Source: Bacteroidaceae bacterium (lineage in GTDB: Bacteria; Bacteroidota; Bacteroidia; Bacteroidales; Bacteroidaceae). From it: DNA of 47,316 bases. This document shows positions 1,102 through 9,562 of this stretch, in pieces. Under the pieces are notes generated by a model. The model saw nothing but the letters and a program-made list of their open reading frames with translations. It was not told the DNA's origin and did no database searches. The stretch covers positions 1-47,316 of the forward strand of contig JAFXTO010000011.1 in NCBI GenBank assembly GCA_017535725.1, written 5' to 3'. Every line of letters starts with the position of its first letter. Positions within the stretch are counted from its first letter, which is position 1. A program made the position numbers and the translations under genes.

Positions 1102-1410
1102 TTATAGCTTCTCTATGTCTTCGGCACTAAGGCCTGTATATTTCTCTATTAGTTCCACAGTCATACCATCAGCCTTCATCTTTCGAGCGGTATTCTGTTT
1201 TTCTTCTTCGCGACCTTCTTCGCGGCCTTGTGCAAGACTCTTCTTGATGGCCGTCTTCATCACACTATAGTTGTCCCAGAACACCTTCCTGCTCTCCTCA
1301 TATTCCCAGCGCTTTGCTTCTGAATATCGTGCTATCTCGGCCTGCTCGAACAGCTTCTTGAAGCCGAAATCGGTATATGGGTTTATGTATCTTTCACTTC
1401 CTTCTGGCAT
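1102..1410 (-). pseudogene. Internally deleted Rpn-family (PD-(D/E)XK transposase-like) gene
   Basis: The 102-aa frame joins the two ends of an Rpn-family nuclease. The N-terminus RYINPYTDFGFKKLF (residues about 7-21) is the typical opening of full-length proteins of about 300 aa. It runs straight into the typical C-terminal tail: EQAEIARYSEAKRWEYEES, an Arg/Glu-rich coiled segment REEGREEEKQ, and MKADGMTVELIEKYTGLS. The roughly 200 residues between them, with the nuclease core, are absent. The shared KLF(E) sequence at the junction suggests recombination over a short similarity. The frame stays open, so a short DNA-binding-like peptide could still be made. A TATATTTG -7 box lies at 1489-1482. 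Confidence 0.78.
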
Positions 1411-1762: not shown

Positions 1763-2104
1763 TCAGAATATGGATTCAATGATTTTATCAACAATCTCGT
1801 TAAAATAAACCTCTTTGATAGCCCCAAGCCGACGAACGACATCTCGTTCGACATAGCCTGCAATAATCTGACACTTTACAAGACTGGGCTTCGCAAAAGT
1901 ATGCCCAATAATCATCTCGTCTGTTAAAGGGTATGAATATTGTGGATTTAACCAATCGTTGGACGTGATAAGCACGAGATAAAACATTCCATCTTCCGCC
2001 TCCTGTAACTCGTCATTCGAAACGATAATTGCAGGATGCGGCTTGAAAGTGCCATCAGGGAAGAGGAAGCTGACTTCTACGATATCTCTTTGATGATATT
2101 TCAT
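1763..2104 (-). CDS. PemK/MazF-family toxin
   Basis: A 113-aa protein matching the type II toxin PemK/MazF family, which are usually ribosome-dependent or free mRNA endoribonucleases with an SH3-like barrel. Family hallmarks are an N-terminal RDIVEVSFLFPDGTFKPHP (residues about 6-24, beta1-beta2 with Pro-rich loop), AIIVSNDEL (the V(I)S motif), YLVLITSND, and SLVKCQIIAGYVERDV, where the conserved Lys/Cys strand precedes the C-terminal helix. The start ATG overlaps the antitoxin stop by four bases (2101-2104), giving translational coupling. Length is normal for the family and nothing is broken. Target specificity cannot be read from sequence. Confidence 0.88.
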   Translation of the reverse strand: MKYHQRDIVEVSFLFPDGTFKPHPAIIVSNDELQEAEDGMFYLVLITSNDWLNPQYSYPLTDEMIIGHTFAKPSLVKCQIIAGYVERDVVRRLGAIKEVYFNEIVDKIIESIF

Positions 2105-2310
2105 ACGTAACGTGCAATGATGTTGGCCATTGATTTCTTTGAATGTGTAAGAAATGCTTGCATTTCTGCACGATGTGTTGCAACTTCTTCGGGAGTTGGC
2201 TCCTCCAGAATGATTTCTTTTTCTATAAAAAGTCCAGTAGCTAAAAGTGCGGCGAGTTTTCGCCGGGCAAGCGCATTATTAGGATTATATTCTAATGTAA
2301 CCGTACACAT
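2101..2310 (-). CDS. Antitoxin partner of PemK/MazF toxin
   Basis: A 69-aa protein directly upstream of, and overlapping, the toxin. It opens MCTVTLEYNPNNALARRKL, the form of small Bacteroidota antitoxins, with a predicted N-terminal beta strand and helix (dimerisation or DNA binding), then an acidic segment EKEIILEEPTPEEVATH. Antitoxin-first order and coupling fit a type II module in which the antitoxin neutralises the toxin and represses the operon. It has its own good promoter at 2339-2369. Family assignment rests on context and the N-terminal pattern. Confidence 0.78.
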   Translation of the reverse strand: MCTVTLEYNPNNALARRKLAALLATGLFIEKEIILEEPTPEEVATHRAEMQAFLTHSKKSMANIIARYV

Positions 2311-3184: not shown

Positions 3185-3583
3185 ATGAAAAAGAAAATTT
3201 GCCTACTCTTGACATTGTTATCAATCCTTTTCAGCTCTTGCCATCAGGACAATCCACAGTATGAATACAAGATTCTGCAACTAAAAAGCGCAATCGATGA
3301 ACACATGACAGAGGATTTCCAGCCTTCGAAGTTCGATGATCCTACGCGTACGCTTAATCGTATGGCCAGTGAGGGCTGGACCCTCGACCACGTCTACACG
3401 GTCGTAGGCACCACCTACCCCAACCTTTCCACAGACAAAATGCACGTCGGCGGAATCCGTAGCAACACCAAAACACATTGCGTCTACTTTATTTTCAAAA
3501 GAAGAAGAATAGCAGGGACGAAAGAAGTGCAGGAAATGGAAACCATTAACGAGTATTCCATACCATTTACGGTGACGGAGTGA
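3185..3583 (+). CDS. Predicted lipoprotein with DUF4177-like fold
   Basis: The start at 3185 is chosen because MKKKICLLLTLLSILFSSC is a clean lipoprotein signal with the lipobox Cys at residue 19; the frame opens at 3140 but the extra residues do not help. The mature part of about 113 aa has the DUF4177-like pattern: YEYKILQL near the N-terminus, LNRMASEGWTLDHVYTV in the middle and YFIFKRRR near the end. DUF4177 proteins are small and mostly uncharacterised. It is predicted to be anchored in the outer or inner membrane. It stands alone behind its own promoter, at the edge of the accessory region. Confidence 0.72.
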   Translation: MKKKICLLLTLLSILFSSCHQDNPQYEYKILQLKSAIDEHMTEDFQPSKFDDPTRTLNRMASEGWTLDHVYTVVGTTYPNLSTDKMHVGGIRSNTKTHCVYFIFKRRRIAGTKEVQEMETINEYSIPFTVTE

Positions 3584-3608: not shown

Positions 3609-3645
3609 TTTATTTTTAAGAACAAAATAATAATGATTACTTTTG
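3609..3645 (+). promoter_or_regulatory. Probable promoter of the zinc-ribbon/nuclease operon
   Basis: A -7 box TACTTTTG is at 3638-3645, 34 bases before the ATG at 3679. A T-rich GTTTATT at about 3608-3614 sits where the -33 element should be, though it is not an exact TTTG. Confidence 0.6.
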
Positions 3646-3678
3646 TACTGTAATAACAATAAAAAAGCTCAATAACAC

Positions 3679-3828
3679 ATGGTAGAATCTAACGGAACCA
3701 TCTTCTGCCCCATGTGCGGCAGCTACAACATTCTGTATGACTTCGGCGTACTGATATGCCAGGATTGCCAATGGACGTGGGAGCCGGATGAAGAAGAAGA
3801 ACAAGTGATTATAAACGAACTATATTGA
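3679..3828 (+). CDS. Zinc-ribbon microprotein (49 aa)
   Basis: A short frame with two Cys pairs: FCPMCGSYN (Cys10, Cys13) and ICQDCQWTW (Cys28, Cys31), 14 residues between the pairs, then an acidic tail EPDEEEEQ. This is a classic C4 zinc ribbon, similar to the N-terminal ribbon of PhnA/YjdM-type proteins but lacking their second domain. It follows the TACTTTTG box and ends 28 bases before the next gene, so it is probably the first gene of the operon that ends with the predicted nuclease. A metal-stabilised protein- or nucleic-acid-binding role is inferred only from the fold. Confidence 0.7.
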   Translation: MVESNGTIFCPMCGSYNILYDFGVLICQDCQWTWEPDEEEEQVIINELY

Positions 3829-3856
3829 ATTATGAATTAGAATAATAATAATACTT

Positions 3857-4231
3857 ATGGGAAAAAAGAAAGTTAATATTTATGAACCTTTCTGGAGATC
3901 TATTCTAAATGACATTCTAGAATGTATTGAAGACGGAGGCGATGACTTAGAAATAAAGAGGAAGACGTTTGAATCTTATGGTGGTGAACGTACTTCATCT
4001 GGATATGACTTCTCTATAAATTATGAAAATGGGGATTTAACTCTTTATGGGAATTCTTCATTACATTCTTCCGCCGTAGCCAGAGACCTTAACAATGTTC
4101 TGTCTAGTAGCTTGATCTTTAAAAAATTGGCAACTGGAAAACGAATTCATTTTCGTTGCAAGCAGGATAGAATGGATAAATCCCAATATCTTTTATGTAT
4201 AGAAGTAAATACTATTGACTATGGAGTATAA
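3857..4231 (+). CDS. Unknown protein A of the nuclease operon
   Basis: A 124-aa protein with no family I recognise. It has a Lys-rich start (MGKKKVNIYEPFW), an acidic helix, then an alternating pattern suggesting beta strands (GYDFSINYENGDLTLYGN) and a C-terminal SSLIFKKLATGKRIHFRCK segment. No signal peptide or membrane segment is visible. The sequence is AT-rich compared with the rest of the window. Its end overlaps the next gene by 11 bases (4221-4231), so the two are likely coupled and may act together. Confidence 0.7.
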   Translation: MGKKKVNIYEPFWRSILNDILECIEDGGDDLEIKRKTFESYGGERTSSGYDFSINYENGDLTLYGNSSLHSSAVARDLNNVLSSSLIFKKLATGKRIHFRCKQDRMDKSQYLLCIEVNTIDYGV

Positions 4232-5003
4232 AATAAAACATATATTAGCGACACAATTAATCAATGATTGGAGTTTAAAGGAAATGCTAGATGATATTGA
4301 TCGGATCAGCATCCTGACAATTCCAACTGATATTGCTAATTATATTCAGACAAAACAGTGGACTCAGGCTCTGACATATTTCAGTTCTTTGGAAGAAAAT
4401 GAAAAATATGATGATGAACGCCGTTTAATAGCCCTTTGGATAGCTAATCGATTGAGGCACAAAATCCGAAGCGAGGAAGAGGAGAGAATACAAAAAATGT
4501 TAGAAAAGAAAGAACAAGAAGAGGATGAACAATGGCAGAAGGAGGCAGAAGAAAGGAACGCTGCCAATGAGAACGCTATGGAAATAAGGAAAAAGACACA
4601 TTCTCAATGGACAAAGTCAACCCAAGAGGAATGTAACCAATTGTTGTTTGATTACGTTTGGGAAAATTTCCCTCTCCTAAAGAACGGTTATGATAGGAGT
4701 ATTTTTTCAAGCGCTCTATATAGCTATCGTTTTGATTCTAAATTTGATTATTACAGATTATCAACGGAAGCTCGAACAAAATATGATCAAGCTGTCGCAT
4801 ATGTGGAGACTGAAATTCGCAGACTCTTTGACGAATTCCAGAAAAATAATATAGAACAATGGATAGTAGACCTCAAGAAATGGATGATGGAACATGGTTT
4901 AAAAAAGTATACCAAAGGAACCATAATTTCTTTTTTTAAGGACAAGAAATTGAAAGTCTCAGAATTAACAATTGAAACTATCAGAGTTCAAGTAAACAAA
5001 TAG
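4221..5003 (+). CDS. Unknown protein B of the nuclease operon, central coiled coil
   Basis: Start ATG at 4221 is chosen; a TTG at 4215 is possible but weaker. The 260-aa product has an N-terminal helical domain (about 1-70), a strongly charged Glu/Lys/Gln segment (about 75-120, for example EEEERIQKMLEKKEQEEDEQ) predicted to be a coiled coil, then a helical C-terminal half with WENFPLLKNGYD and IEQWIVDLKKWMMEHG. No catalytic motif, signal peptide or membrane segment is seen. It overlaps protein A and ends 15 bases before the nuclease gene. A sensor, scaffold or partner of the nuclease is plausible but only inferred. Confidence 0.7.
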   Translation: MEYKIKHILATQLINDWSLKEMLDDIDRISILTIPTDIANYIQTKQWTQALTYFSSLEENEKYDDERRLIALWIANRLRHKIRSEEEERIQKMLEKKEQEEDEQWQKEAEERNAANENAMEIRKKTHSQWTKSTQEECNQLLFDYVWENFPLLKNGYDRSIFSSALYSYRFDSKFDYYRLSTEARTKYDQAVAYVETEIRRLFDEFQKNNIEQWIVDLKKWMMEHGLKKYTKGTIISFFKDKKLKVSELTIETIRVQVNK

Positions 5004-5018
5004 AAAATCGTCACTAAT

Positions 5019-5732
5019 ATGAAAATAGTTACTCGAAACATAAACCATAACAGGGCATCAAACAGCTATAAAGTCGACCTTCGCGGGCGGCATGATGACG
5101 AGGATTGTACAGTCTTAGTCAACGATGAAGGACTGGAATATACATTCATTTTTAAGGCAAAACAACTTATGGGGTGGAAAAGTCTTCATTTCACATATTT
5201 AGATGGGCAAATTGTTTGGAAATCTGTCAAGCCCCAAACACAGATTCCTTCAACACAAACTAAAGAAAGAAAAGATGTAACGTCTTATTCCCCAATGAAA
5301 ACCCAGTCTAATGGCCGAAAGGATTCTGACGAAACATACGTTATAGATTTGTGTGACGAAGTACTTAAACTACAAGCTTCGCGTCAGCACACTTTCCCAT
5401 TTTTAGTTGGAGATGGAGCGCGTCCTCGACGGCTCCCGGTTGACGCATACTATGAGCCACTTAAATTAGTTGTAGAATATCGTGAGTTGCAACATACCGT
5501 GGCTGTTCCTTTCTTTGATAAGCCAGATAAGAAGACCGTAAGTGGGGTTCCGCGAGGAGAGCAAAGGGCGCTTTACGATAATAAGCGACGCAACGTCTTG
5601 CCGAAACATGGAATTAACCTTGTTGAGATTTCCTATTTTGATTTTACTTATGAAGGTAAAAATAAACGACTTGTTCGGAATAGGGAAGCAGATTTAGATG
5701 TCGTCCTAAATAAGTTGTCAGCATTCTTGTGA
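5019..5732 (+). CDS. Predicted VSR/DUF559-like (PD-(D/E)XK fold) nuclease
   Basis: A 237-aa protein in two parts. Residues 1-70 look like a small beta-rich domain, followed by a polar linker (about 71-100). The C-terminal half has the pattern of the VSR/DUF559 endonuclease superfamily: LPVDAYY (Asp142), VVEYRELQHT (Glu153, Glu156, Gln158, His159), then RGEQRALYDNKRRNVLPKHG (residues 179-198) and LVEISYFDF. This mirrors D-x10-E...QH and YD-xxR-xx-L-xxxG-xx-L in that group. It is the last gene of an AT-rich operon, and its TGA abuts the stop of the WYL regulator on the other strand. DNA cleavage is inferred; the target is unknown. Confidence 0.68.
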   Translation: MKIVTRNINHNRASNSYKVDLRGRHDDEDCTVLVNDEGLEYTFIFKAKQLMGWKSLHFTYLDGQIVWKSVKPQTQIPSTQTKERKDVTSYSPMKTQSNGRKDSDETYVIDLCDEVLKLQASRQHTFPFLVGDGARPRRLPVDAYYEPLKLVVEYRELQHTVAVPFFDKPDKKTVSGVPRGEQRALYDNKRRNVLPKHGINLVEISYFDFTYEGKNKRLVRNREADLDVVLNKLSAFL

Positions 5733-6644
5733 TCACTCCTCATGCCTCCTCAAAGCCTCCCGATAGACGTCACGAACTCTATTGCGGAGGCTTTCGGGTT
5801 TCAGAACGGTGAGGGAGTTGCTGCGCGAAAGGAGGGCCATGACGAAATCGTTGGTTATGCGCAGACGAAGGGAGATGCGGAACTCCTGGTCATTGTCCAC
5901 GAGAATTCGCTGGGAGGGATGCAACGGCAGAGATTTGAGGAAACGACCGTCAAGAGGGCTATAGCAGAGTTCGATGTCTTCAATGGGCATCCGCTCATCG
6001 TTCCAAATGCCGTAGCAGTCGCGGTAGAGTTCTGCAACATTGATGTTCATACGACGGGAAAAGGTCTCAGCATCAAGGATGCAAAGATTAGATATGCGTT
6101 CGATACCGTAGGACTTGAGTTTGCCATCGTTGAAAGCTAGGAGATACCATCGCCCCTGGGACTCCTTGAGATAATGGGGATAAGCGCGTTCTACTTGGTA
6201 GGTGGTAACCTTGCGGTAGTCCTCGTAGACGAACTGAACGGGATGCTGTTCGCGAATGGCAGCAAGCAGAATGGCCATATTGTTGCTATGGGGCGGTCGG
6301 TGGTGCTCAGCGAGGATGTAAGAATGTAAAGGTGAATGGCTATCAAGTTCGTTCAGGAGGTCAAAGTTGAACAGCAGCTCTTCCAACCGTTCCTCACGAT
6401 TGCTTAAATCTTCTTTTATGGCATAGCACCCCAACTTTACATCGAATCCTATTGTTAGTCCGAAAGCTTCTTCGATGTGTCGGAAATCTCGTTCCAAGGT
6501 CTTCCCGGAAATATCCTTGTAACCACGTATTTCCATGCTATCATTCACCTCATTCAAAAGCTCTTGCTGGCTAATGTACCTTCTGCCACTCCTCACTTTT
6601 TGGATGATGACCAGCATTCGTTTGATACTTTCTAATTGACTCAT
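5733..6644 (-). CDS. WYL-domain transcriptional regulator
   Basis: A 303-aa protein. Residues 1-75 form an N-terminal winged helix (ISQQELLNEV, KTLERDFRHIEEAFG). The WYL domain is at about 125-195, with VQFVYEDYR, the hallmark GRWYLLAF (165-171) and SYGIERISNL, followed by a C-terminal WCX-like extension. WYL proteins bind nucleic acid or nucleotide ligands, and several control phage-defence loci (BrxR and CapW groups). Here the gene converges on the nuclease operon with no gap: its stop at 5735-5733 directly follows the nuclease TGA at 5730-5732. It may regulate that operon, or belong to the core genome beside it. No perfect -7 box was found upstream. Confidence 0.85.
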   Translation of the reverse strand: MSQLESIKRMLVIIQKVRSGRRYISQQELLNEVNDSMEIRGYKDISGKTLERDFRHIEEAFGLTIGFDVKLGCYAIKEDLSNREERLEELLFNFDLLNELDSHSPLHSYILAEHHRPPHSNNMAILLAAIREQHPVQFVYEDYRKVTTYQVERAYPHYLKESQGRWYLLAFNDGKLKSYGIERISNLCILDAETFSRRMNINVAELYRDCYGIWNDERMPIEDIELCYSPLDGRFLKSLPLHPSQRILVDNDQEFRISLRLRITNDFVMALLSRSNSLTVLKPESLRNRVRDVYREALRRHEE

Positions 6645-6703
6645 GACGATGTGAAGTGTGTCTTTGACAAAATAAATACGCGCTGGTATTTTCGTACATC
6701 AGT

Positions 6704-7489
6704 TTAGGGAAGCGTAAAGCGGGTACCGTCCCAACGGAAACGGAGGGGACGAAGCAGGGGAGTAATGAGCTGACGCTCGTACTTGTCGAGGTACGCGGGT
6801 TGGAGAGTGGCGGTCATCGTGACGGAATCCGGGGAGAGAGCGAGGCGCACGGGGTGGAAGGAGTCGAGCGAGCGAAGGGCCTGATGGAGGCTGTCTGAGG
6901 TAGAGGTTGCGGGTTCTGGAGTAACAAAGGCCGAGACAGGGGGAAGGGAGAAGCGGGGGAGGGCGGATGTGGTGCTGTCGAGGGGGGACCAGTCTGCATG
7001 AAAGAATTGGATGTTGGAGTCCTCGAGGCGACGAGGGGTGTCGGGTTCACCTGCCTGAATGGTGCGGACGAGGCAAAGGAGGAAGGTGGTGTCGGGGGAT
7101 GCAGCGGGGAGCAGCTTCATTTCCAAGAAGGAGGAAGGGCTGGTACGGAAGCGGGCGTAGTCGGAGGTGAGGGCTTCGAGGGTGACGTACTCATCGAGGG
7201 CATTGCGCACGCGCGCTTCCATGTTGTTCTCTATGAAGTCGATGCAATCCAGCCGGTTGTTCTTGGAAACCAGCGGGGCAATGGAGTCGGGCATCGCTGC
7301 AAAGACATCGCGCATCATTATCGGCTGCGCCGATAAAGTGAAAAGTGAAAAGCCCCTCTCCGACTCTCCCAGTGGGGGCGAGAGAGGTGAAAGGTGAAAG
7401 GTGAAGAGAGAAAAGGGGAAAGGGAATAATAGGGCTGCGCTGAAGAGGGAGCGGAGGAAGAGTGGACGTAACATAGTATGTTTCTTCAT
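6704..7489 (-). CDS. DUF3256 family protein with repeat in its signal region
   Basis: The 261-aa product matches the Bacteroidota DUF3256 family: MRDVFAAMPDSIAPL, NRLDCIDFIENNM, ALDEYVTLEALTSDYARFR, MKLLP and TIQAGEPDTPRRLEDS (residues about 59-160). Function is unknown; members are secreted. The N-terminus has a hydrophobic start (MLRPLFLRSLFSAALLF) and the normal processing site region (LSAQPI). Between them lies an extra Ser/Pro/Phe-rich stretch of about 29 residues encoded by a palindromic repeat (7335-7405). Whether the signal still works is unclear. ATG at 7474 (residue 6) is an alternative start. The 3' half is rich in Ser/Thr/Pro. Confidence 0.75.
   Translation of the reverse strand: MKKHTMLRPLFLRSLFSAALLFPFPFSLFTFHLSPLSPPLGESERGFSLFTLSAQPIMMRDVFAAMPDSIAPLVSKNNRLDCIDFIENNMEARVRNALDEYVTLEALTSDYARFRTSPSSFLEMKLLPAASPDTTFLLCLVRTIQAGEPDTPRRLEDSNIQFFHADWSPLDSTTSALPRFSLPPVSAFVTPEPATSTSDSLHQALRSLDSFHPVRLALSPDSVTMTATLQPAYLDKYERQLITPLLRPLRFRWDGTRFTLP
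7335..7405. repeat. CCCCTCTCC-type palindromic repeat inside DUF3256 gene
   Basis: AGCCCCTCTCCGACTCTCCC followed by a GGGGGCGAGAGAGG arm forms a GC-rich hairpin, flanked by AAAGTGAAAAG and GGTGAAAGGTGAAAGG runs. It is read in frame within the signal region. The arm resembles those in truA and at 8581-8715. Confidence 0.65.
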
Positions 7490-7638: not shown

Positions 7639-8577
7639 TTACCGGCTTCCCAGGTACAGGAACACCATACTGAGTAGGACGAGGGCGAGGTCTACGACCT
7701 TGTAGCGCAGGTTCTTCTCGTGGAAGACGAGGGCTCCGACGAAGAAGCTGACGAGGACGCTGCCGCGACGTATCATGGAAACGACAGCTATCAGCGCATC
7801 GGGCACGCTGAGGGCGTAGAAATAGACGAAATCTGCGGCGCAGAGGAAGAGGGAGATGAGGGGGATGGACCAGTGCCAATGGAAGGCGGAGCTATGGGGA
7901 CTATGAGACCCAGAAGACCCATGAGACCTATACTTCAGAATAAGCAACACCACCGCCATCATCACGAACTGATAGAACATGAAGTAGCTCTGGACTACCA
8001 TCCGGTTAAGCCCTACCCCACCCGACTCTGCGGGTGCCAACAGGAACTTATCGTAGAGGGCGCTTACAGCACCAAAGGCGGAGGCCATCACGGCGAGGAC
8101 TATCCAACGGTTGTGGCGGAAGTCGATGCCTTCCTTCTTTCCACTGCGGCTGAGGAGGTAGAAACCGAAGACTGCACACATCACACCTATCCACTGGTAG
8201 AGGTTCAGCCGCTCGCCAAAGACGAGGATGGCTCCGAGGAGCACCATCACGGGGCGCGTAGCATTGATGGGACCAACAATCGTCAGCGGCAGGTTCTTCA
8301 GGGCGATGTAACCACAGAGCCACGAAGCCAGCACGATGATGGCCTTCAGGAAGACGTATTTGTGTACCTCCCAGCCACATACGGGGACATAGAAGATGGA
8401 ATCAGGGGGCAGCTGTCCCACGGCAGAAAGGAGGACAAAAGGCAAGAAGATGAACGACCCGAAGAGGGTGTTCAGCGTCAGCACGACCACGACATCATTG
8501 GCTTTCAAGGCTTGTTTCTTGAAAACGTCATAGAAGCCGAGGAGGGCGGCAGAGGTGAAAGCTAAGAGTAACCACAT
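7639..8577 (-). CDS. EamA/DMT-family transporter
   Basis: A 312-aa protein with about ten hydrophobic segments in two repeats, the EamA arrangement of drug/metabolite transporters. Repeat 1 includes LLLAFTSAALLGFYDVFKK and VGPINATRPVMVLLGAILVF. Repeat 2 includes AVMASAFGAVSALYDKFL and DALIAVVSMIRRGSVLVSFF. It sits in the inner membrane; substrate unknown. Between the two repeats, about residues 215-230, is a low-complexity stretch (SHGSSGSHSPHSS) encoded by a 9-bp tandem repeat, probably a cytoplasmic loop. A GTGAGG Shine-Dalgarno-like sequence 4 bases before the ATG comes from the neighbouring palindromic element. Confidence 0.85.
   Translation of the reverse strand: MWLLLAFTSAALLGFYDVFKKQALKANDVVVVLTLNTLFGSFIFLPFVLLSAVGQLPPDSIFYVPVCGWEVHKYVFLKAIIVLASWLCGYIALKNLPLTIVGPINATRPVMVLLGAILVFGERLNLYQWIGVMCAVFGFYLLSRSGKKEGIDFRHNRWIVLAVMASAFGAVSALYDKFLLAPAESGGVGLNRMVVQSYFMFYQFVMMAVVLLILKYRSHGSSGSHSPHSSAFHWHWSIPLISLFLCAADFVYFYALSVPDALIAVVSMIRRGSVLVSFFVGALVFHEKNLRYKVVDLALVLLSMVFLYLGSR
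7903..7929. repeat. Three 9-bp repeats inside the DMT transporter
   Basis: ATGAGACCC, AGAAGACCC and ATGAGACCT lie head to tail, 27 bp and in frame, encoding Ser/Gly/His-rich residues between the two EamA repeats. Confidence 0.7.
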
Positions 8578-8580
8578 ACA

Positions 8581-8715
8581 GCCTCACCCCCGGCCCCTCT
8601 CCTATTGGAGAGGGGAGTATATACTATTGAATAAAAAATACCTACTCGCATATCATATTTCAGTGTTAAAGGTAATCACTCCCCTCTCCAATAGGAGAGG
8701 GGGCGGGGGTGAGGC
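8581..8715. mobile_element. Composite palindromic element (MITE-like), truA/DMT junction
   Basis: Arms of 38 bp at 8581-8618 and 8678-8715 are inverted copies with a single mismatch, 59 bp apart. Each arm is itself a hairpin (CCCCTCTCC-TATT-GGAGAGGGG type). The right arm encodes the last residues of TruA, and the left arm ends 3 bases from the DMT start codon. There is no transposase. The architecture recurs in truA (9221-9369) and before purM (20702-20850), so it is a dispersed repeat, possibly non-autonomous. Confidence 0.7.
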
Positions 8716-9562
8716 AATACTCCACATTCTGCAGGAACAGCCCCCTTGCTGGCACGCTATCGCCTGCGGCACAGCGGTCTTTCTTCTCTATGACCTCGCG
8801 GAAACCATCGAGGGTGAGCTGACCACGGCCGACCTCCATGAGGGTGCCGACGATGGCGCGCACCATATTGCGGAGGAAACGGTCTGCGGTAATCTCGAAG
8901 CGCCACTCGTGGTCGGACAACTGTACCCAGCGCGCCGAACGGACATGACAGATATTGGTCTTCGTGTCGGTATTCAGCTTGGAGAAACTGGTGAAATCCT
9001 CGTATTCCAGGAGCAAGGCCGCCGCCCGGTTCATCGCCTCGAAGTCAGGAGTACGGACCAAACGCCAAGAACGGTCGCGCAGGAAAGGTGACTTGCGGGT
9101 ATGCACATAATAATAATAGGTACGCGCACGAGCAGAGAAGCGGGCATGCATGTCATCCGGTACAGGGACGATTTTGTGAATGGCGATATCAGGAGGCAGC
9201 ATCCCATTCAGGCGATAAACCCAGCCCCTCTCTAACTCACGGCCCCTCTCTAACTCCCCCCGTGGGGGGGAGGACTGCATGTCCTCAGGAAGAGAAAATG
9301 ATTCCCTTACCTCTGAGGATTTCTGCGGGAACGAGGCTCCCCCCCCCACGGGGGGAGCGGGGAGAGGGGTATCAAAATGTGCCACCATCAATGCTGCATG
9401 CACGCCTGCATCCGTGCGCCCGGCTCCCGTGACCGCAATCTCTTGGCGCAGCAACAGGGAGAGGGCACGCTGAAGCACTCCCTGAACGCTCTCGCCATTG
9501 GGTTGTATCTGCCAACCGTGGTAGGCGGTTCCGTCGTAGCTGAGGTAGATGAAGTAGCGCAT
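8666..9562 (-). CDS. truA: tRNA pseudouridine(38-40) synthase TruA
   Basis: TruA converts U38-U40 in the anticodon stem-loop of tRNAs to pseudouridine. Family landmarks: YLSYDGTAYHGWQIQPNGESVQG (3-25, including two tryptic-like motifs), TGAGRTDAGVHA with catalytic Asp51, LNGMLPPDIAIHKI (118-131), HARFSARARTYYYYV, and ADRFLRNMVRAIVGTLMEVGRG near the end. At 298 aa it is about 45-50 residues longer than usual because of an insert at about 65-114 encoded by a palindromic element. Its last residues (LTPAPSPIGEGSDYL) come from a second element. The ATG overlaps the stop of the upstream endonuclease as TGATG. Confidence 0.95.
   Translation of the reverse strand: MRYFIYLSYDGTAYHGWQIQPNGESVQGVLQRALSLLLRQEIAVTGAGRTDAGVHAALMVAHFDTPLPAPPVGGGASFPQKSSEVRESFSLPEDMQSSPPRGELERGRELERGWVYRLNGMLPPDIAIHKIVPVPDDMHARFSARARTYYYYVHTRKSPFLRDRSWRLVRTPDFEAMNRAAALLLEYEDFTSFSKLNTDTKTNICHVRSARWVQLSDHEWRFEITADRFLRNMVRAIVGTLMEVGRGQLTLDGFREVIEKKDRCAAGDSVPARGLFLQNVEYCLTPAPSPIGEGSDYL
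9221..9369. repeat. Composite palindromic element inserted in truA
   Basis: GC-rich hairpin arms (CCCCTCTCTAACTCCCCCC with GTGGGGGGGAG at about 9242-9273; CTCCCCCCCCCACGGGGGG with GAGAGGGG at about 9336-9369) flank about 60 bp. The whole is in frame and replaces a short surface loop between HFDT and LNGMLPPD. The layout matches the element at 8581-8715. Confidence 0.75.

What the first reader, a model, noticed from the sequence alone, without database searches (positions are those of the whole stretch)
3638..6644. AT-rich four-gene operon ending in a VSR/DUF559-like nuclease, facing a WYL regulator
One promoter box (TACTTTTG) precedes a 49-aa C4 zinc ribbon, a 124-aa unknown protein, a 260-aa coiled-coil protein and a 237-aa protein with VDAYY...VVEYRELQH...RGEQR...YDNKRR, the VSR/DUF559 nuclease pattern. 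Genes overlap or are 15-28 bases apart, so they are probably one unit. A WYL protein, a class known to control phage-defence loci, converges on it. Base composition differs from the core genome, and neighbours are remnants of defence and mobile genes. I know of no described system with this set; a new defence module is inferred.
Basis: partly seen in the sequence, partly recalled or inferred. Interest (0 to 1): 0.8.

Follow-up and report, generated by a model that had tools for sequence, protein, structure and literature searches.

The report
Vsr-like nuclease island with WYL regulator
A bacterium carries an acquired DNA island whose last gene encodes a probable small DNA-cutting enzyme of the Vsr/PvuRts1I type next to a regulator; regulators of this branch recur beside small nuclease genes in related bacteria, although the exact four-gene set was found nowhere else.

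The parts
3638..3645 (+). TACTTTTG, Bacteroidales-type -7 promoter-like box (consensus recalled)
   Evidence: 30 such boxes in window vs 18.5 expected, so weak alone
3679..3828 (+). P1, 49-aa C4 zinc-ribbon protein (two CxxC pairs)
   Evidence: weak similarity to the C-terminal zinc ribbon fused to P4-family nucleases in L009, L010, L011 (blastp 7e-5 in a small set; phmmer 0.004 in a larger one) and L014 (0.023; 0.72)
3857..4231 (+). P2, 124-aa small domain protein
   Evidence: relatives in 5 of 392 other order genomes; same domain C-terminal to a GIY_YIG_2 protein in L031 and to a KAP NTPase in L099
4221..5003 (+). P3, 260-aa charged protein, apparently helix-rich by reading, without known relatives
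5019..5732 (+). P4, 237-aa protein: N-terminal ~95 aa beta-rich part of unknown type plus C-terminal Vsr/PvuRts1I-like endonuclease domain (residues ~100-237)
   Evidence: fold; motif; family
5442..5495 (+). predicted catalytic motif D142-x10-E153-x2-E156-x2-H159 of P4
5733..6644 (-). WYL-WCX transcriptional regulator, convergent, part of the acquired island
   Evidence: no ortholog in 24 genus-mates; clade
6645..6703 (.). junction between the island and the conserved core block (6704-7489, EamA 7639-8577, truA 8666-9562)

Best explanation
The stretch is the inner part of an acquired island inserted beside a conserved chromosomal block. Its effector is P4, an endonuclease of Vsr/PvuRts1I type that cuts or nicks DNA with D142, E153, E156 and H159 at the metal site. 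Relatives of P4 carry interchangeable N-terminal domains in the same chain or stand alone, some of them inside R-M operons. Here P4 lacks a C-terminal SRA-like domain, so target choice is probably supplied by its own N-terminal part and by P1 (zinc ribbon), P2 (adaptor/sensor-like domain also joined to a GIY-YIG nuclease and a KAP NTPase) and P3. The convergent WYL protein comes from a clade that travels with small nucleases and probably keeps the nuclease in check or senses infection. Most likely role: restriction of incoming, perhaps base-modified, DNA. SHOWN: gene layout, island, fold prediction, motif, family spread, WYL clade pattern. INFERRED: nuclease activity, cooperation of P1-P3 with P4, regulation by WYL, defence, modified DNA as target.
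Confidence: 0.5

Rival explanations
1. P4 is a standalone nuclease gene, and P1, P2 and P3 are unrelated cargo that happen to lie in one transcription unit of a gene-collecting island; no four-part complex exists.
For: Some family members are single-domain proteins (143 aa in L017, 151 aa in L023). P2 relatives never share a genome with P4 in the order sample apart from the window's own. GC3 runs from 26% (P2) to 56% (P1).
Against: 11-nt overlap and gaps of 15 and 28 nt. A zinc ribbon is fused to P4-family nucleases in Prevotella-type loci, and P2's domain is fused to another nuclease, so links of these domain types to nucleases recur; the ribbon similarity to P1 itself is weak.
Confidence: 0.35
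2. The nuclease serves DNA repair (very-short-patch or base-excision type) rather than defence.
For: Best fold match is the repair enzyme Vsr. A plasmid relative lies next to a uracil-DNA glycosylase. A standalone P2 relative overlaps a gene that by reading looks like a DNA glycosylase (L098; not family-tested).
Against: Patchy, mobile distribution and R-M or type IV neighbours. The motif spacing equals that of the restriction enzyme PvuRts1I. A partner cytosine methylase was not searched for as such, and the neighbour lists show only 25 of 126 and 201 families.
Confidence: 0.15
3. Homing-type or self-propagating nuclease: the domain spreads itself by cutting DNA without the island (as I-Bth0305I does, from recall).
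For: I-Bth0305I catalytic domain is among the top fold matches; copies on prophage contigs and plasmids.
Against: Recurrent co-location with WYL regulators and R-M operons, and fusion to zinc ribbon or interchangeable N-terminal modules, fit restriction better. Intron or intein context was not searched for.
Confidence: 0.08
4. WYL gene and nuclease share only a preferred insertion neighbourhood; WYL does not regulate the nuclease.
For: Convergent orientation here; other genes lie between them in L013 and L019; no shared operator.
Against: In L181 and L184 the GIY-YIG-like gene ends 12 and 9 nt before the WYL gene on the same strand; in L021 WYL, a small gene and the nuclease overlap. The regulator tree separates Vsr from GIY partners with 100/99 support.
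Confidence: 0.35

Closest known systems
PvuRts1I / AbaSI family (5hmC-dependent type IV endonucleases)
   Different: No C-terminal SRA-like domain; N-terminal part unknown; three extra small genes; sequence similarity only PF21598 at 0.0017 in a relative, below cut-off
Vsr very-short-patch repair endonuclease and DUF559-like proteins
   Different: Below the curated DUF559 cut-off; no partner cytosine methylase noticed, though none was specifically searched for
Winged-helix fusion endonucleases (wH-GIY-YIG, PD-(D/E)XK-wH, 6mA-dependent type IV restriction; PMC11037411, passages seen)
   Same: Small nuclease domains combined with small reader-like domains; among the relatives one N-terminal module occurs on Vsr-like (L021, L022) and on GIY-YIG-like (L071, L178) proteins, and L184 has HARE-HTH before a GIY-YIG-like part
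   Different: The window's P4 has no recognised wH domain; candidate readers are on separate genes; WYL regulator attached; no target tested
BrxR-type WYL regulators of defence islands (PMC9122601, passages seen)
   Same: WYL-WCX regulator in an acquired island; [quoted passage not shown]
   Different: Here convergent, and its clade is linked to single small nucleases; BrxR membership not tested
KAP NTPase and GIY-YIG proteins carrying the P2 domain
   Same: P2 domain at their C-terminus
   Different: In the window P2 is a free protein

Membership tests
PvuRts1I-like endonuclease | D-x10-E-x2-E-x2-H catalytic motif | tested here: met
   against residues given in PMC4157451
PvuRts1I-like endonuclease | SRA-like domain C-terminal to the nuclease | tested here: not met
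   P4 ends five residues after the last nuclease helix (222-232 of 237)
PvuRts1I-like endonuclease | Pfam PF21598 curated cut-off | tested here: not met
   P4 itself no match; best relative 18.9 bits vs 27
Vsr / PD-(D/E)XK fold | Vsr-like alpha-beta-alpha fold | tested here: met
Vsr repair endonuclease | nicks 5' of T in T/G mismatch (recalled) | not testable with these tools
   needs biochemistry
DUF559 (PF04480) | curated cut-off 20.6 bits | tested here: not met
   P4 no match; L017 13.2 bits
WYL regulator | WYL and WCX domains above cut-off | tested here: met
BrxR family | closest similarity to BrxR and R-box binding | not tested
   no BrxR sequence was compared
Known PADLOC defence system | P1-P4 match PADLOC models | tested here: not met
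   P2, P3, P4 none up to E 1; P1 only weak hits (0.009 and higher); WYL matches CRISPR-accessory WYL models
Type I R-M operon accessory | hsd genes beside P4 | tested here: not met
   none among the 9 window proteins between 1105 and 6644 scanned; other ORFs to 12 kb only read. Met in L091, L092 and, by reading plus tallies, L012, L024
Conserved four-gene module | P1-P4 together in another genome | tested here: not met
   P3 0 of 392 others with credible similarity; P2 and P4 genomes do not overlap apart from the window's own

The most novel reading that the evidence does not exclude
Bacteroidales hold an undescribed class of defence cassettes built on one clade of WYL regulators, in which the nuclease (Vsr-like or GIY-YIG) is swapped on a shared set of small reader-like domains. 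The window carries a split, multi-subunit version in which targeting has moved to separate proteins (P1, P2, P3).
Probability: 0.3. Interest if true: 0.75.

Novelty: new variant of a known kind. Interest (0 to 1): 0.55.

Why it matters
If true, a widespread but unnamed nuclease family (11 of the 12 plasmid hits are annotated 'hypothetical protein' and the twelfth has no feature; no Pfam, NCBIfam or PADLOC model fits P4) becomes a testable set of restriction factors, and a single WYL clade becomes a handle for finding more small-nuclease cassettes in Bacteroidales and beyond.

Tried and rejected

Not in print, as far as seen: the listings (20 of 262 papers shown; 8 of 42; 3 of 3; 8 of 74; 8 of 109; 8 of 49; 6 of 377) showed no paper on this nuclease family or on WYL with Vsr-like or GIY-YIG cassettes. 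Unlisted papers and most subscription journals are not covered. I saw passages of PMC4157451 (plus its section 3.1 whole), PMC9122601, PMC11037411 and PMC4012209; of all others only listings with the start of the abstract.

Full report
WHAT IS THERE. The gene layout is as reported: P1 3679-3828, P2 3857-4231, P3 4221-5003 and P4 5019-5732 on the + strand, 28 nt apart, overlapping by 11 nt, and 15 nt apart; a WYL gene on the - strand at 5733-6644 whose stop codon abuts that of P4. WYL and WCX domains pass their Pfam cut-offs; P2, P3 and P4 match no credible model in Pfam, PADLOC or NCBIfam; P1 gives only weak zinc-ribbon hits. GC rises from 33-35% (P2, P3) through 41% (P4) to 49% (WYL), with P1 at 45%, against 53.5-58% in the core.

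AN ACQUIRED ISLAND THAT INCLUDES THE WYL GENE. In the genus of the window the block truA - EamA transporter - 6704-7489 gene is conserved: the EamA protein is found in 23 of 25 genomes, own included, and 10 of the 11 neighbourhoods compared also hold the 6704 homologue (L135 does not). Beyond that gene the relatives carry other genes (read for 10 of the 11), for example one that by reading is ribosomal protein L31. None of 24 genus-mates has P4, P3 or an ortholog of the WYL gene; the best WYL match by E-value is 27% identical. These genomes are 61-92% complete, so single absences mean little, but the pattern is uniform. The WYL gene therefore arrived with, or into, the island and is not core.

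MODULARITY. The nuclease stands alone, follows different N-terminal domains, or precedes, by reading, a hydrophobic stretch and a zinc ribbon (L009, L010, L011, L014, Prevotella and relatives). P1 matches these ribbons at 7e-5 (three) and 0.023 in a small set, but only 0.004-0.72 in a larger one, so this link is weak. One N-terminal module, its profile built from L006, L021, L022 (Vsr-like) and L071 (GIY-YIG-like), was then found in the new GIY-YIG-like protein of L178 (6.9e-23). The GIY-YIG-like profile was built from L069 and L071; Pfam sees L069, L071 and L181 only below its cut-offs. L184 has HARE-HTH above cut-off before a part that matches this profile at 3.9e-65. The same GIY-YIG type lies 2-2.5 kb from Vsr-like genes in L018 and L016/L090. 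P2's domain is the C-terminus of a GIY_YIG_2 protein (one of 5 members at 5e-38, by length L031) and of a membrane KAP NTPase that was not in the P2 profile (5.5e-17; KAP 6e-46). Two other P2 relatives are free proteins of 111 and 112 aa and one is a 61-aa ORF; their single-sequence E-values are 8e-4 to 0.007, and they are themselves rows of the P2 profile.

NEIGHBOURS OF THE NUCLEASE FAMILY. Among 22 loci (123 of 146 neighbours scanned) type I R-M genes occur in 4 (L012, L024, L091, L092; L091 and L092 confirmed one by one, L012 and L024 named by reading plus the tallies), a McrB-like EVE-AAA protein in L009, GmrSD in L089 and a deaminase of the dCMP type in L038. In L024 the order is hsdM, hsdS, nuclease, hsdR. 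Twenty arbitrary 7.5-kb stretches gave one type I methyltransferase and one specificity protein, taken as one locus (PADLOC only, 106 of 117 ORFs scanned; the lists show 25 of 47 and, for the nuclease neighbours, 25 of 201 families). The difference, 6 of 22 against 1 of 20, is suggestive only (p 0.096), and the two sides were not searched in exactly the same way.

THE WYL CLADE. WYL genes 44-51% identical to the window's lie beside P4-family genes in L013, L019 and L021, loci found through P4. Twenty WYL-centred loci from the order hold no P4-family gene, but L069 and L071 hold a GIY-YIG-like gene. Ten further WYL loci, taken from the families of G356 and G008 because these held clade members (a third family, of G365, gave none in 14 genomes), add L178, L181 and L184 with strong matches; L180 has a weaker one (9e-9), not counted. 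In a first tree of 23 the four Vsr-linked WYLs needed two changes and were not shown to be one group. In the tree of 33 (L082, broken, left out; it has no nuclease hit either) all nine nuclease-linked WYLs lie in one clade of 12 (100/100), Vsr-linked and GIY-linked on two sides of a 100/99 branch; 0 of the 21 other WYLs have either nuclease. For rows not found through P4: 5 of 8 against 0 of 21, p 4.7e-4; dropping two near-copies inside the clade 4 of 6 against 0 of 21, p 8.5e-4, near-copies outside (such as L182 and L183) being kept. Limits: the clade boundary was drawn after seeing the labels and the root is a midpoint; L069 and L178 are from one genus and look like one locus; G356 was already known to hold a GIY-YIG-like gene when its family was chosen; several outside loci are short contigs; only two nuclease types were sought.

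WHAT IT DOES. The likeliest reading is an acquired cassette in which a Vsr/PvuRts1I-type nuclease attacks incoming DNA under control of a WYL regulator. PvuRts1I has an SRA-like reader domain that P4 lacks at its C-terminus, and winged-helix nucleases read 6mA (PMC11037411, passages); here a reader could be the P4 N-terminal part, P1, P2 or P3. That the four proteins work together rests on packing and on domain associations seen elsewhere, not on conservation. Steps shown: layout, island, fold prediction, motif, distribution, clade. Steps inferred: activity, target, partnership, regulation, defence.

VERDICT. Observation confirmed; interpretation partly supported. The four-gene set is, in what was searched, unique to this genome. 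The more general and more testable finding is the link between one WYL clade and small interchangeable nucleases. P(P4 is an active endonuclease) about 0.85; P(anti-foreign-DNA role) about 0.6; P(P1-P3 needed for P4) about 0.45; P(WYL regulates it) about 0.5; these are judgements.

Noticed in passing
window 1763-2310 (-): MazF/PemK-like toxin gene (PF02452, 2.7e-7) preceded by a 69-aa ORF that may be its antitoxin, in the same AT-rich island.
   Followed up: no
window 1102-1410 (-): 102-aa remnant matching the end of a PDDEXK_2 family transposase (below cut-off).
   Followed up: no
window 3185-3583 (+): Lipoprotein-like gene with a DUF4177 match just above cut-off and its own TACCTTTG box 26 nt before the ATG at 3185.
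   Followed up: no
L181 5450-6892 and L184 5489-7204: Nuclease-WYL gene pairs 12 and 9 nt apart on one strand; L184's protein has HARE-HTH before a GIY-YIG-like part.
   Followed up: partly
L070 6439-8878, L180 3983-6422: WYL clade members without a counted nuclease neighbour directly follow a 498-aa AAA-type ATPase gene (by reading).
   Followed up: no
L099 6712-9633 (-): 973-aa membrane KAP NTPase with the P2 domain at its C-terminus: a possible defence NTPase with an undescribed sensor-like domain.
   Followed up: partly
L098 2745-3562 (-): Standalone P2 relative overlaps a gene that reads like a DNA glycosylase; hint at DNA-lesion sensing.
   Followed up: no
L013 8234-8656, L019 7743-8183: The same small exported-looking protein follows the WYL gene in both loci (by reading); not seen beside the window's WYL.
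   Followed up: no
L038 7261-8799 (viral contig): Deaminase-domain protein (PF00383 1.6e-16) resembling anti-phage dCTP deaminases (recalled) close to a P4-family gene.
   Followed up: partly
L018 9893-12018, L016 9896-11571: P4-family genes with a C-terminal membrane-like part, beside free or fused copies of the same N-terminal module: looks like recent duplication and domain shuffling.
   Followed up: partly
L006 1091-1809 (G376): A P4-family gene whose two parts lie in different frames; left as it is.
   Followed up: no
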